DNA of 43,916 nt, taken from NCBI GenBank assembly GCA_030591505.1, contig JAUVAY010000003.1, positions 1 through 43,916 on the forward strand. The letters run 5' to 3'. The notes beneath the pieces are model-generated. The model saw only the letters and a program-made list of their open reading frames with translations, was not told the DNA's origin and did no database searches. This stretch comes from Flavobacteriales bacterium (GTDB lineage Bacteria; Bacteroidota; Bacteroidia; Flavobacteriales_D; JAHECK01). A program made the position numbers and the translations under genes. The first letter of the stretch is position 1. Every line of letters begins with the position of its first letter. Shown here one piece after another: positions 13,781-20,472 of the stretch.

Positions 13781-13796
13781 TGTGACCTAAATCACA
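13781..13796. promoter_or_regulatory. CRP/FNR-family operator-like palindrome TGTGACCTAAATCACA
   Basis: Perfect TGTGA-N6-TCACA, about 95 bp upstream of the respiratory locus. Confidence 0.7.
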
Positions 13797-13823
13797 TTTG
13801 TAAATAATCAGGGTCATAAAATA

Positions 13824-13838
13824 ATCACTATTTGTGAT
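13824..13838. promoter_or_regulatory. Second palindrome ATCAC-TATTT-GTGAT, possible operator
   Basis: Perfect 5-bp arms, same half-site letters in outward orientation. Confidence 0.35.
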
Positions 13839-13869
13839 GGACATTTACTGTAAATATTGACAAAAACAA

Positions 13870-15117
13870 ATGTTCAAAAAAACAAATATCATGAAAACAA
13901 AATCATTTTTAATGTTAATGACACTTGGAGGCGCACTCCTTTTTACTACATCTTGTAAAGACGATGTTGAAGATCCTCCTCCACCTCCTCCTCCGGGACC
14001 GGGTGAAAGTACAACTGAATTAAAAGTAGCTAAATTCACTTCTGCACCAGACATGGATGGAACTATTGATGACATGTGGGCAAATGCTCAAAAATTAGTA
14101 GGTACTACTTCTGTTCCTACATTAGATCCAAGAGATACTTACTTAAACTCTGATGGAGAAGGTACTGAAGAAGATCTTGGTTTATTTTACCCATACTCAG
14201 GAGAAGAAAATGACTTCACATTACGTGCTGGTTATAAAGACGACAGAATCTATTTCTTAATGGAATGGGTTGATGGTGATGATAGTAAAGACAGACAGTC
14301 TTGGTACTTTGATGAAGATGATCATCTTTGGAAAGGTGAGCATAAATATGCTAACGAAGTAAATGACAAATTTTACGAAGATAAATTTGCATTCTTATTT
14401 CCAATAGGAGAGGTTAATAATTTCAGTAGCTCTACTTGTTATGCTACTTGTCACCAAGCTTCATCAATCGCAACTCCAAAAGACAAACATACTAGACACT
14501 ACTTAAAAGAGGATGGTCAATTAGTTGATATGTGGCATTGGAAACGCGTAAGAGGAACGTATATGGGTCAAATTGATGATCAACAAATGACTTATGTTGC
14601 CCCTCCTTACGATTCAGGTTCAAATGGTAGAACTGGTGACGAAGGTGGAGCTGGTTATGCTAACAACTCACAAACATTATTCAATGGTTCTGTAGATGTA
14701 AGTGTACCTCTATATGTTGTTCCTAATGGAACAGATTATTACTGGATCAGTGTTGATGACTTCGGTGGAAGTGCAGTATTAGTAGAATCTGTTGATGAAA
14801 TGGGTGTTTTAACATTACTTGGTGGAGCTACCATCGATCCTAATGGTGATACTGGTTATGCACAAGGTTCAGGTAACAAACGTATTCCTAGTGTTACTAC
14901 ACATGCATTTACTGGTGGAAGAGCTGATATTGAAATCACTGCTGTATATACTGGTTCTGGTTGGATCTGTGAATTCACACGTTTACTTGACACTGGTGAT
15001 GTTGATGATGTAGTATTTGATATCACTGAAGAATTAGACTTTGGTTTAGCAATATTTGATAACGCTGCAATCGCACACGGAATCAAGCCAGGTCTGAAAA
15101 TGACTTACGTTCAATAA
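13870..15117 (+). CDS. Surface-type lipoprotein with ethylbenzene-dehydrogenase/cytochrome c-552-like heme-binding domain; likely true start 13891
   Basis: Lipobox LLFTTSC followed by KDDVED and a Pro linker; LVDMWHWKRVRG and LDFGLAIFDNAAIAHGIKPGLKM typical of EB_dh domains; CYATCH motif. Confidence 0.75.
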   Translation: MFKKTNIMKTKSFLMLMTLGGALLFTTSCKDDVEDPPPPPPPGPGESTTELKVAKFTSAPDMDGTIDDMWANAQKLVGTTSVPTLDPRDTYLNSDGEGTEEDLGLFYPYSGEENDFTLRAGYKDDRIYFLMEWVDGDDSKDRQSWYFDEDDHLWKGEHKYANEVNDKFYEDKFAFLFPIGEVNNFSSSTCYATCHQASSIATPKDKHTRHYLKEDGQLVDMWHWKRVRGTYMGQIDDQQMTYVAPPYDSGSNGRTGDEGGAGYANNSQTLFNGSVDVSVPLYVVPNGTDYYWISVDDFGGSAVLVESVDEMGVLTLLGGATIDPNGDTGYAQGSGNKRIPSVTTHAFTGGRADIEITAVYTGSGWICEFTRLLDTGDVDDVVFDITEELDFGLAIFDNAAIAHGIKPGLKMTYVQ

Positions 15118-15136
15118 TTAATATAACATTATTTAT

Positions 15137-15163
15137 GGGGCGTCAATCAACAGTTGGCGCCTC
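15137..15163 (+). terminator. Hairpin between first and second locus genes (possible attenuator)
   Basis: ggggcgtcaa-tcaacag-ttggcgcctc, 10 bp with two G-U pairs; no strong T tract. Confidence 0.4.
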
Positions 15164-17842: not shown

Positions 17843-19149
17843 GTAAATATGATGACTTAGTAGCAGAATTAGCGCCACGGAAATTCACGAAATTAGGCGT
17901 TAGCTGGACCATCGGTTTAGCAATTGTAACTTTAATTGGAATCGCTGCCTATATCGATCAGATAATTAAAGGACAAATAGTTACCAATATGCGTGACTAT
18001 GTATTATGGGGAGTATACATATCGAATTTTGTGTTTTTTGTTGCTATAAGTTTTGTTGGCTCCCTTACCGCCGCAGTTTTACGATTAACACATAAAACCT
18101 GGCGAACTCCATTGGTGAGAATTGCTGAAATAATTGCTTTTGCAGCCATCGTTTTAGCTGGGGTCACTATTATATTAGATATGGGTCGCCCGGATAGATT
18201 ACTTAATCTATTTATACACGCTCGTTTACAATCTCCTATTACCTGGGATGTTGTGATCATTACAACTTATATTGCAATCAGTGCGCTGATACTTTATATT
18301 CCACTATTGCCGGATCTTGCTATTCTTAAAGATAAGTTTAAAGATAACTGGACAGGGATTTGGTATAAACGACTCTCCTTAAAATGGAAGGGTAGTGTTA
18401 AGCAATGGGCTATTCAAAAAAAATCTATCAAGATAGTCGCAATACTTATTATTCCTGTTGCACTAATCCTGCAAACAGTTGATGCATGGCTATTCTCTAC
18501 CACTTTCAGAATTGGATGGGATAGCACTAATTTAGGTCCTTATTTTATCGCAGGTGCCTTTGTAGTTGGGGTTGGCGGATTGATCTCGGTTACTTATGTG
18601 CTACGTAAAGTTTACAAACTGGAAAAATACATTACAGAACTTCATTTTGATAAATTGGGTAAAATGCTCGTTTTTGCTTGCCTTGTTTACCTTTACTTTA
18701 ATATAAGTGAGTACTTATTACCCGCGTTTACAGCTCCAAAAGCAGAAGAAGCTCATTTACGTGAACTCTTCGTTGGACATTATGCACCGCTATTTTGGTT
18801 TGTGACTATTGGTGGACTAATCCTACCCATTATTCTATTGATATTCCCATGGGGTCGAAAACCAAAAGTGCTTTTCTTTATAGCTATTTTGGTTGTGATC
18901 ACATCATGGTGGAAACGCTATTTAATAGTTGTTCCTGCATTATTACACCCATTTCTACCTGTACAAGGAGTACCGGAATCTTGGCACAGCTATTTCCCGA
19001 GTATGCACGAATGGGCTATCGTAAGCGGTACGCTTGCTGCAGCTCTTCTCATAATTACGATCTTAGTAAGATACGTGCCCATCATTCCAATACATAGGAC
19101 GGCAACAGAAATGGGGATATTACCTAACGATAAAGATGAACAATCATGA
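17839..19149 (+). CDS. nrfD: NrfD/PsrC family quinone-interacting membrane subunit
   Basis: About 10 TM segments; AGVTIILDMGRPDRLLNLF and W-rich C-terminal half; ATGA overlap with Fe-S subunit. Confidence 0.87.
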   Translation: MSKYDDLVAELAPRKFTKLGVSWTIGLAIVTLIGIAAYIDQIIKGQIVTNMRDYVLWGVYISNFVFFVAISFVGSLTAAVLRLTHKTWRTPLVRIAEIIAFAAIVLAGVTIILDMGRPDRLLNLFIHARLQSPITWDVVIITTYIAISALILYIPLLPDLAILKDKFKDNWTGIWYKRLSLKWKGSVKQWAIQKKSIKIVAILIIPVALILQTVDAWLFSTTFRIGWDSTNLGPYFIAGAFVVGVGGLISVTYVLRKVYKLEKYITELHFDKLGKMLVFACLVYLYFNISEYLLPAFTAPKAEEAHLRELFVGHYAPLFWFVTIGGLILPIILLIFPWGRKPKVLFFIAILVVITSWWKRYLIVVPALLHPFLPVQGVPESWHSYFPSMHEWAIVSGTLAAALLIITILVRYVPIIPIHRTATEMGILPNDKDEQS

Positions 19150-20003
19150 AAGCAAATTTAATTTCAAAATATGCATTACTGATCTTCTTAGGATCTTTCT
19201 TGATGATCATCAGTACGCAGCTTCAAGGACAAGATAAGTTCAAAGCAAAACTCTCTGTCGATTACCAAAAAACGATGGGTGAAGGTTCTGTTTTACTCAT
19301 CAAGGTTAAATACAAAGCAGAAAAAAAGTATATACCTGCAAGTTTTCTTAAGGTAAATATCTATGAGCAAATAAATGAAGATTCACTGGCTTTGATCGGA
19401 GATATTTCTACCGACCATGGAGGGAGTGCTGAATATGCTCTGCTACTAAATAGTGACTTTAGCGATTCGCTCTACACCTATCGATATATAGTAAAGATCG
19501 AAAACGATGATAAATTTAAAGACGCTAAAAAGGCTATCAAATTCATTGATGTAAACTTAGTTGCCAAAGCAATAGTAGAAGACAGTGTACATTACATTTC
19601 AGCTACTTTAACGGACGCTACCGGAACAGCAATTGAAGGTGCTAAACTGGAAGTAAAAGTGCATCGATTGTTTGCTCCACTCACTATTGGTGAATCTTCT
19701 TATAAAACAGATGATAATGGCAAAATTCTTGTACCTATTGAAAACCCATTACCGGGAGTAGATGGAATTTTAACTTTTGAAGTTATGTCTGACAGTAGAA
19801 GCTATGGAATTGCAAAAATTATTTTTGATGCCCCTATTGGAAAAGTGGTGACAGACCAATCTACTTTCGACCAACGAACAATGTGGGCTCCCCCTCGAAA
19901 TACACCTTATTTCTTATTGATATTTCCAAACCTTCTAATATTAGGTATTTGGGCAGTTATTCTACTTCTAGTAAGTAACCTTTATAAAATATATAAATCT
20001 TAA
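19146..20003 (+). CDS. Accessory membrane protein: signal peptide, Ig/carboxypeptidase-regulatory-like domain, C-terminal TM
   Basis: ATGA overlap with nrfD; single C-terminal TM LILGIWAVILLLVSNLY. Confidence 0.65.
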   Translation: MKANLISKYALLIFLGSFLMIISTQLQGQDKFKAKLSVDYQKTMGEGSVLLIKVKYKAEKKYIPASFLKVNIYEQINEDSLALIGDISTDHGGSAEYALLLNSDFSDSLYTYRYIVKIENDDKFKDAKKAIKFIDVNLVAKAIVEDSVHYISATLTDATGTAIEGAKLEVKVHRLFAPLTIGESSYKTDDNGKILVPIENPLPGVDGILTFEVMSDSRSYGIAKIIFDAPIGKVVTDQSTFDQRTMWAPPRNTPYFLLIFPNLLILGIWAVILLLVSNLYKIYKS

Positions 20004-20013
20004 ATAAACAAAC

Positions 20014-20418
20014 ATGAGAACTTTAAAAAATTTATTACTATTCACATTTATAACATTAGGGCTTTACGCCTTTAACACGGCAGTTCAGGAAGACTGGGTA
20101 GTACCTGAAAAGTATAAAGCGATGGAGAACCCTACAGATGTTGAAGATGATGAAAATATTGAAATTGGTGAAGAATTGTATATGAAACATTGTAAATCTT
20201 GCCATGGAAAAGAAGGTTTGGGTGACGGGCCAAAAGCAGAAGAGCAAACAGGTGAATTAGGTGATTTTTCATCTGAGGAGTTTCAAGCTCAATCTGATGG
20301 GGCTTTATTTTATAAAACAACTATTGGACGAGACGATATGCCAAATTATGATAAGAAGATGCCGGATGATGAAGATCGATGGTTGATCGTAAATTATATG
20401 AGAATACTAGGTGAATAA
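20014..20418 (+). CDS. Monoheme c-type cytochrome
   Basis: GEELYMKHCKSCHGKEGLGDGPKA. Confidence 0.9.
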   Translation: MRTLKNLLLFTFITLGLYAFNTAVQEDWVVPEKYKAMENPTDVEDDENIEIGEELYMKHCKSCHGKEGLGDGPKAEEQTGELGDFSSEEFQAQSDGALFYKTTIGRDDMPNYDKKMPDDEDRWLIVNYMRILGE

Positions 20419-20439
20419 TTAATATTAATAATTGTTTTG

Positions 20440-20472
20440 ACCGGCAGACTAATTGTTTGCCGGTTTTTTTAT
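20440..20472 (+). terminator. Intrinsic terminator closing the locus
   Basis: ACCGGCA...TGCCGGT followed by poly-T. Confidence 0.85.

What the first reader, a model, noticed from the sequence alone, without database searches (positions are those of the whole stretch)
13781..20472. Candidate undescribed trans-envelope electron conduit built from Fe-S/NrfD, an OM barrel and heme lipoproteins, without a molybdopterin enzyme
Seen: a same-strand run encodes a heme-domain lipoprotein, a monoheme lipoprotein, an OM beta-barrel, two Tat-leader proteins (one Fe-S), NrfD, an accessory IM protein and a monoheme cytochrome, ending in a strong terminator. Knowledge: NrfD/PsrC plus four-cluster Fe-S subunits exchange electrons with quinones, normally partnered by a MopB catalytic subunit (PsrABC, DmsABC, ActABC of alternative complex III). 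Here no MopB gene exists in the window. Inference: electrons may pass quinol - NrfD - FeS - periplasmic cytochrome - barrel/lipoproteins at the surface, i.e. a porin-cytochrome-like extracellular electron-transfer route, or an uncatalogued terminal reductase with EB_dh-type heme as the active or relay site.
Basis: partly seen in the sequence, partly recalled or inferred. Interest (0 to 1): 0.8.

Follow-up and report, generated by a model that had tools for sequence, protein, structure and literature searches.

The report
Quinol-linked outer-membrane heme protein operon
A conserved eight-gene operon, recurring across the bacterial phylum Bacteroidota, appears to take electrons from the inner-membrane quinone pool and deliver them to heme proteins on the outer membrane; the inner part resembles known machines, but the outer-membrane part looks new and its final electron acceptor is unknown.

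Summary
The eight genes are real, co-directional, tightly spaced and closed by an intrinsic terminator (20439-20465). The cluster is not a one-genome accident. Of 80 Bacteroidota loci carrying the same EB_dh lipoprotein, the monoheme-lipoprotein/DUF5777-barrel pair follows it in 55 of 70 with enough sequence. The Fe-S/NrfD module then follows in 32 of 52. No molybdopterin enzyme lies near any Fe-S/NrfD-bearing copy, and 5 of 37 genomes with the operon have none at all. Two of its premises are weaker. NrfD/Fe-S pairs without MopB are already known (SirCD, NrfCD, CbcSTU, DsrOP). The barrel is a small 12-stranded one, too narrow to sheath a cytochrome as MtrB does, and occurs in ~39% of Bacteroidota genomes with a monoheme lipoprotein and YceI but usually without NrfD. 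New here: the EB_dh protein has an invariant CX3CH heme-attachment motif and a Bacteroidota-type surface-export signal, and can be swapped for an MtrC-like hexaheme lipoprotein in front of the same barrel pair. Best reading: a menaquinol dehydrogenase wired to outer-membrane/surface heme lipoproteins. Electron transfer across the outer membrane is plausible but unproven.

The parts
13870..15117 (+). EB_dh (ethylbenzene-dehydrogenase gamma / NXR-C-like) heme lipoprotein with invariant CX3CH (C190-C194-H195) and LES-like surface-export signal (CKDDVED)
   Evidence: Pfam; CX3CH in 80/80 and WHWK in 79/80 homologues; invariant columns; AlphaFold model pLDDT 87.6, nearest folds 7b04_C and 2ivf_C; LES statistics
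15275..15646 (+). monoheme c lipoprotein (lipo1h), one CxxCH, no LES enrichment (likely periplasm-facing)
   Evidence: adjacent to the DUF5777 gene in 55/70 EB_dh loci and 50/60 DUF5777-sampled loci
15657..16580 (+). DUF5777 outer-membrane beta-barrel, 12 strands predicted
   Evidence: Pfam; AlphaFold pLDDT 88.8; fold matches NanC/FapF/COG4313
16605..16877 (+). Tat90: small Tat-leader protein resembling the N-terminal arm of the Fe-S subunit; no cofactor motif
   Evidence: HHalign Tat90 family vs FeS N-terminus prob 82%, E 1.1e-5
16889..17842 (+). Tat-exported ferredoxin-type Fe-S subunit, DsrO/NrfC/PsrB-like; motif I lacks its second Cys (C-x5-C-x3-C)
   Evidence: 55/59 homologues lack that Cys
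17839..19149 (+). NrfD/DsrP-like integral-membrane quinol-interacting subunit
   Evidence: tree separates it from ActC of alternative complex III
19146..20003 (+). accessory periplasmic Ig-like protein with C-terminal TM helix (acc)
   Evidence: weak Big_1; synteny
20014..20418 (+). monoheme cytochrome c
   Evidence: Cytochrome_CBB3 8e-11; synteny
20439..20465 (+). intrinsic terminator closing the operon
23455..24564 (+). hexaheme lipoprotein on a collagen-like stalk, MtrC/MtrF domain II/IV-like; probable partner
   Evidence: directly upstream of EB_dh in 13/59 loci and in front of lipo1h-DUF5777 in 5 loci; downstream of a second FeS-NrfD-acc module in the sister genome

Best explanation
The operon encodes a two-storey electron-export system. 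Inner membrane: NrfD oxidises menaquinol and passes electrons to the Tat-exported Fe-S subunit on the periplasmic face, steadied by the accessory and Tat90 proteins, and from there to the soluble monoheme cytochrome. Outer membrane: the cytochrome reduces the periplasm-facing monoheme lipoprotein, which sits with the 12-stranded DUF5777 barrel and hands electrons to an exchangeable surface heme lipoprotein. That is the EB_dh protein carrying a covalent CX3CH heme, and/or the MtrC-like hexaheme lipoprotein, which delivers them to an external acceptor. Shown by sequence: the genes, domains, heme motifs, export signals, operon structure and co-conservation. Inferred: direction of electron flow, surface location of the EB_dh protein, the hop across the outer membrane, and the acceptor.
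For: Gene content and operon. Conserved order EBdh-lipo1h-DUF5777-(Tat90)-FeS-NrfD-acc-cytc in Flavobacteriaceae, Saprospiraceae, Chitinophagales and others: 32 of 52 EBdh loci with >=5.5 kb downstream have FeS+NrfD, all with the barrel pair. In a 299-genome Bacteroidota sample 3 of 5 adjacent EBdh-DUF5777 loci, besides the window, carry FeS/NrfD. No MopB in FeS/NrfD-bearing loci; 5 of 37 such genomes have no PF00384. NrfD forms clades apart from ActC. LES: 92% of 37 distinct EBdh N-termini have >=2 acidic residues at +2..+6 against 32% of other lipoproteins in the same loci and 36% of lipo1h (LES defined in PMC5080379). The heme lipoprotein before lipo1h-DUF5777 is EBdh (58) or hexaheme (5), and 20 of 22 hexahemes match the MtrC/MtrF domain. 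SirCD, a NrfD/Fe-S pair, feeds ferric citrate respiration in Shewanella (PMC11434368).
Against: The 12-stranded barrel cannot enclose a cytochrome, and one periplasmic heme alone would not span the membrane, so a physical path is not demonstrated. DUF5777 with a monoheme lipoprotein and YceI is common without any NrfD. EBdh-lipo1h-DUF5777 also occurs with YceI and an OB-fold protein instead of FeS/NrfD. The LES was scored by a home-made lipobox rule. No expression, localisation or redox data exist.
Confidence: 0.5

Rival explanations
1. The EB_dh protein (with the hexaheme or monoheme proteins) is itself the terminal reductase of a soluble small acceptor such as an oxyanion; the barrel is the porin that admits the substrate, and the FeS/NrfD module is its quinol dehydrogenase.
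For: In six loci an ArrX/AioX-like periplasmic binding protein plus histidine kinase plus sigma-54 regulator stands directly upstream of EBdh (ArrX 4.5e-51). 12-stranded channel folds such as NanC and COG4313 are small-solute channels. EB_dh homologues belong to respiratory Mo-enzyme heme subunits.
Against: EB_dh domains with known function are electron relays, not catalytic sites (PMC8387239, PMC8840923). The window's own genome has no such sensor protein. The LES suggests the heme protein is outside, where import would not be needed.
Confidence: 0.22
2. The electron flow is reversed: external or periplasmic donors are oxidised at the outer-membrane hemes and electrons enter the quinone pool through FeS/NrfD, as QrcABCD does for periplasmic cytochromes, or as in Fe(II) oxidation by Cyc2-type monoheme-porin proteins.
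For: NrfD complexes can run either way. Monoheme cytochrome plus small barrel recalls Cyc2 (from memory). FoxC, a likely Fe(II)-oxidation protein, resembles EbdC (PMC10654088). Oxidases and complex III exist in the genome.
Against: Cyc2 is a fusion with a larger barrel (from memory), and no fusion was found here. The two-domain arrangement and the MtrC-like partner are more typical of electron export.
Confidence: 0.12
3. The DUF5777-monoheme lipoprotein pair (with YceI elsewhere) is a general outer-membrane redox or lipid-handling device unrelated to export, and FeS/NrfD merely keeps it reduced, for example for oxidative or thiol homeostasis of the envelope.
For: DUF5777 occurs in 117/299 Bacteroidota genomes, next to YceI in 56/60 and to a monoheme-type lipoprotein in 50/60 sampled loci, mostly without NrfD or EBdh. 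YceI proteins bind isoprenoids (general knowledge).
Against: In this operon the surface-signalled heme protein and the often adjacent multiheme protein point outward.
Confidence: 0.13
4. A MopB catalytic subunit is encoded elsewhere and the cluster is a dispersed ordinary molybdoenzyme complex.
For: The genome has four MopB genes elsewhere; EB_dh proteins are normally molybdoenzyme gamma subunits.
Against: Five of 37 genomes with the operon lack PF00384 altogether. Only 2 of 80 EBdh loci have a MopB homologue in the fetched flanks, and neither has the FeS/NrfD module next to EBdh.
Confidence: 0.03

Closest known systems
SirCD of Shewanella oneidensis / NrfCD / Geobacter CbcSTU / DsrOP (MopB-free Fe-S + NrfD quinol modules)
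   Same: Tat-type Fe-S subunit + NrfD, no MopB, c-type cytochrome partner; best NCBIfam matches are DsrO and DsrP; SirCD can feed ferric citrate respiration (PMC11434368)
   Different: Scores are below all NCBIfam cut-offs; extra accessory and Tat90 proteins; partner is a monoheme cytochrome and an outer-membrane lipoprotein/barrel set; Fe-S motif I lacks a Cys
MtrCAB / porin-cytochrome conduits
   Same: Three-part logic: periplasm-side cytochrome, beta-barrel, surface heme lipoprotein; MtrC-like hexaheme can take the surface slot
   Different: 12-stranded barrel instead of 26 (from memory), single-heme periplasmic lipoprotein instead of decaheme, EB_dh surface protein, no sequence homology of barrel or periplasmic part found
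EbdC / NXR-C (PF09459 heme subunits)
   Same: Same fold family
   Different: Covalent CX3CH heme site instead of Met/Lys heme b (PMC8387239, PMC8840923); lipoprotein with export signal; no MopB or NarH-type partner
Alternative complex III
   Same: NrfD relative ActC is the nearest solved structure; monoheme cytochrome c
   Different: ActC clade is separate; no ActA/ActB; genome has its own complex III

Membership tests
MopB-free NrfD/Fe-S quinol dehydrogenase (SirCD/NrfCD/CbcTU type) | NrfD integral membrane protein next to a multi-cluster Fe-S protein | tested here: met
   FeS and NrfD adjacent in every full locus
MopB-free NrfD/Fe-S quinol dehydrogenase (SirCD/NrfCD/CbcTU type) | Fe-S protein exported by Tat to the periplasmic face | tested here: met
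   RRSFLNNG leader in window:16889-17842
MopB-free NrfD/Fe-S quinol dehydrogenase (SirCD/NrfCD/CbcTU type) | no catalytic molybdopterin subunit | tested here: met
MopB-free NrfD/Fe-S quinol dehydrogenase (SirCD/NrfCD/CbcTU type) | quinol oxidation activity | not testable with these tools
   needs membranes or purified complex
Porin-cytochrome conduit (MtrCAB) | large beta-barrel able to sheath a multiheme cytochrome | tested here: not met
   12 strands predicted at pLDDT 88.8; nearest folds NanC/FapF
Porin-cytochrome conduit (MtrCAB) | multiheme periplasmic cytochrome inside the barrel | tested here: not met
   lipo1h has one heme motif
Porin-cytochrome conduit (MtrCAB) | surface-exposed heme lipoprotein | tested here: inconclusive
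   LES-like signal enriched in EBdh; localisation not measured
Ethylbenzene dehydrogenase / type II DMSO reductase family (EbdABC, NXR) | MopB alpha subunit and NarH-type beta subunit with the EB_dh gamma subunit | tested here: not met
   Fe-S subunit is DsrO/NrfC-like
Ethylbenzene dehydrogenase / type II DMSO reductase family (EbdABC, NXR) | heme b with Met and Lys axial ligands in the EB_dh subunit | tested here: inconclusive
   no invariant Met; invariant CX3CH, WHWK and H403 instead; ligand positions not modelled with heme
Alternative complex III | ActB (MopB-Fe-S fusion) and ActA multiheme with ActC | tested here: not met
   absent from the operon; genuine complex III elsewhere in the genome
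DsrMKJOP | DsrM, DsrK, DsrJ next to DsrOP | tested here: not met
   no such genes in the operon; DsrO/DsrP models below cut-off

The most novel reading that the evidence does not exclude
A new kind of outer-membrane electron conduit confined largely to Bacteroidota: a 12-stranded barrel (DUF5777) with a single-heme lipoprotein on the inside and an interchangeable surface heme lipoprotein outside (an EB_dh protein with covalent CX3CH heme, or a hexaheme MtrC-like protein). It is driven by a dedicated NrfD/Fe-S menaquinol dehydrogenase and gives a large marine and sediment phylum a previously unrecognised extracellular respiration.
Probability: 0.25. Interest if true: 0.85.

Novelty: new variant of a known kind. 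Interest (0 to 1): 0.6.

Why it matters
Bacteroidota are among the most abundant heterotrophs in oceans and sediments, yet few have any known route for electrons across the outer membrane. A conserved, MopB-free operon linking the quinone pool to surface-signalled heme lipoproteins would give this phylum a testable respiratory mode. It would also give DUF5777, a barrel present in about 39% of sampled Bacteroidota genomes and with no paper in the held library, its first functional hypothesis. Cultured carriers exist, so the question is directly testable.

Tried and rejected
A MopB subunit moved elsewhere: rejected. NrfD as a stray ActC of complex III: rejected by the tree and by a separate complex III in the genome. 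DsrMKJOP or another catalogued complex: NCBIfam matches all below cut-off. A lipo1h-DUF5777 fusion as a split Cyc2: none found among locus ORFs. RNA elements in the region: none. Literature: no paper on DUF5777, none linking ethylbenzene dehydrogenase with NrfD in Bacteroidetes or with Lutibacter; the nearest reviews concern Desulfovibrionaceae and Geobacter. A second reading of the barrel, invariant His79 and His265 as heme ligands, was left open: both fall on the hydrophobic (lipid-facing) parity of their strands and no coordinates were available.
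Full report
OBSERVATION. They lie between two terminator-like hairpins, 13437-13462 and 20439-20465. FeS/NrfD and NrfD/accessory genes overlap by 4 bp and the remaining gaps are 10-157 bp. 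The genome is a 2.93-Mb, 213-contig Bacteroidota assembly, 91% complete. It has four other PF00384 enzymes on other contigs, a complete-looking alternative complex III (L044) and three COX1-family genes. This operon is therefore an addition to, not a substitute for, the ordinary aerobic chain.

THE PARTS. The 13870 protein is an EB_dh-family lipoprotein. All 80 homologues fetched carry CX3CH and none carries CXXCH; 79 of 80 carry WHWK. In a 48-sequence alignment reaching Psychromonas and Vibrio the invariant residues include C190, C194, H195, W222, H223, W224, K225, E368, R371 and H403. Its model (pLDDT 87.6) matches NXR-C and EbdC best. Those bind heme b through Met and Lys (PMC8387239, PMC8840923). 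No Met is invariant here, so I infer a covalent, His-ligated heme c. CX3CH heme sites are proposed in ImcH and some CymA homologues (PMC6295460).

The Bacteroidota surface-export signal (LES) is a lysine or polar residue followed by two acidic residues just after the lipidated Cys (PMC5080379). Of 37 distinct EBdh N-termini, 92% have at least two acidic residues at +2..+6, against 32% of 74 other lipoproteins in the same loci, 36% of lipo1h and 44% of the hexahemes. The window's EBdh begins CKDDVED. The EBdh protein is therefore likely surface-exposed and lipo1h likely periplasm-facing (inference).

The DUF5777 protein is predicted as a 12-stranded barrel (pLDDT 88.8) nearest to NanC, FapF and COG4313 channels. 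His79, Gly93, His265, Phe81, Phe267, Gly298, Phe299 and Arg303 are invariant in 61 of 61 sampled sequences. The Fe-S subunit lacks the second Cys of motif I in 55 of 59 homologues. Tat90 resembles the N-terminal arm of that subunit.

CONSERVATION. In 80 EBdh loci lipo1h follows EBdh in 59 of 75, and lipo1h plus DUF5777 in 55 of 70. FeS plus NrfD follow in 32 of 52 with at least 5.5 kb downstream, always together with the barrel pair. Median gaps are 79, 17, 2, -4 and 11 bp for EBdh-lipo1h, lipo1h-DUF5777, FeS-NrfD, NrfD-acc and acc-cytc. About ten loci have a second FeS-NrfD-acc(-cytc) module. This sample was chosen by EBdh, so it was checked in 299 Bacteroidota genomes: DUF5777 in 117, EBdh in 20 of which 12 are strong. 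Besides the window, five EBdh lie next to DUF5777 and three of those carry FeS/NrfD.

MODULARITY. The gene in front of a lipo1h-DUF5777 pair is EBdh 58 times and the hexaheme lipoprotein 5 times. In L096 and L099 both triads stand in tandem. The hexaheme proteins sit on a collagen-like stalk, and 20 of 22 match MtrC/MtrF domains II/IV. The window has one at 23455-24564. In the sister genome its orthologue follows a second FeS-NrfD-acc module. This suggests one conduit cassette with exchangeable surface heme proteins. Conversely, DUF5777 usually travels with YceI (56 of 60) and a monoheme-type lipoprotein (50 of 60) without NrfD, and some EBdh triads carry YceI and an OB-fold protein in place of FeS/NrfD. 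The barrel pair is thus a broader Bacteroidota device that this operon connects to the quinone pool.

NO MOPB. None of the FeS/NrfD-bearing loci has a MopB homologue in its fetched flanks; the two EBdh loci that do (L058, L118) lack FeS/NrfD next to EBdh. Five of 37 genomes with the operon have no PF00384 gene at all, though the completeness of those assemblies is not known. NrfD of these operons forms clades apart from ActC.

HOW IT MOST LIKELY WORKS. Menaquinol - NrfD - Fe-S subunit - monoheme cytochrome - lipo1h at the outer membrane - EBdh and/or hexaheme protein at the surface - external acceptor. Sequence shows the parts, export signals and co-inheritance. Direction, surface location, the outer-membrane hop and the acceptor are inferred. 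The weak step is the hop: a 12-stranded barrel cannot sheath a cytochrome, so either the two lipoproteins approach closely through or beside it, or the barrel serves a soluble substrate. The oxyanion rival gains from an ArrX-like sensor/kinase/sigma-54 set upstream of six EBdh genes, absent from this genome.

COMPARISON AND NOVELTY. NrfD/Fe-S pairs without MopB are known (SirCD, CbcSTU, DsrOP; PMC11434368), so the inner part is a known kind. The EBdh-lipo1h-DUF5777 outer part, its CX3CH heme and its interchangeability with an MtrC-like protein were not found in the searched literature (open-access papers only). I score it as a new variant of a known kind.

Noticed in passing
L157-L216 (60 DUF5777 loci): A lipo1h-YceI-DUF5777 cassette, with either CXXCH or CX4CH monoheme-type lipoproteins, is widespread in Bacteroidota (DUF5777 in 117 of 299 genomes) and has no described function.
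   Followed up: partly
window 15657-16580 (DUF5777 residues 79 and 265): Two His residues are invariant in 61/61 DUF5777 proteins, yet fall on the lipid-facing parity of strands 1 and 11; role unexplained.
   Followed up: partly
L047, L048, L050, L052, L055, L059 upstream of EBdh: An ArrX/AioX-like periplasmic binding protein, histidine kinase and sigma-54 regulator form a three-component system directly upstream of the EBdh gene.
   Followed up: partly
window 16889-17842, residues 91-101: The first Fe-S motif reads C-x5-C-x3-C; the usual second Cys is replaced (mostly by Ala) in 55 of 59 homologues, suggesting a 3-Cys cluster.
   Followed up: partly
L125 and L126 (Psychromonas, Vibrio splendidus): EBdh homologues with the same CX3CH, not lipoproteins, stand before pentaheme and triheme cytochrome genes, with no NrfD or barrel nearby.
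   Followed up: no
window 22100-22597: A monoheme lipoprotein with a His-rich C-terminal tail lies between the operon and the hexaheme gene; metal binding possible.
   Followed up: no
L040 (sister genome, same genus): Two tandem FeS-NrfD-acc modules, the second ending in the hexaheme lipoprotein instead of the monoheme cytochrome.
   Followed up: yes
L247 and L249: Distant EB_dh proteins that carry four CxxCH motifs also lie next to a histidine kinase and sigma-54 regulator.
   Followed up: no
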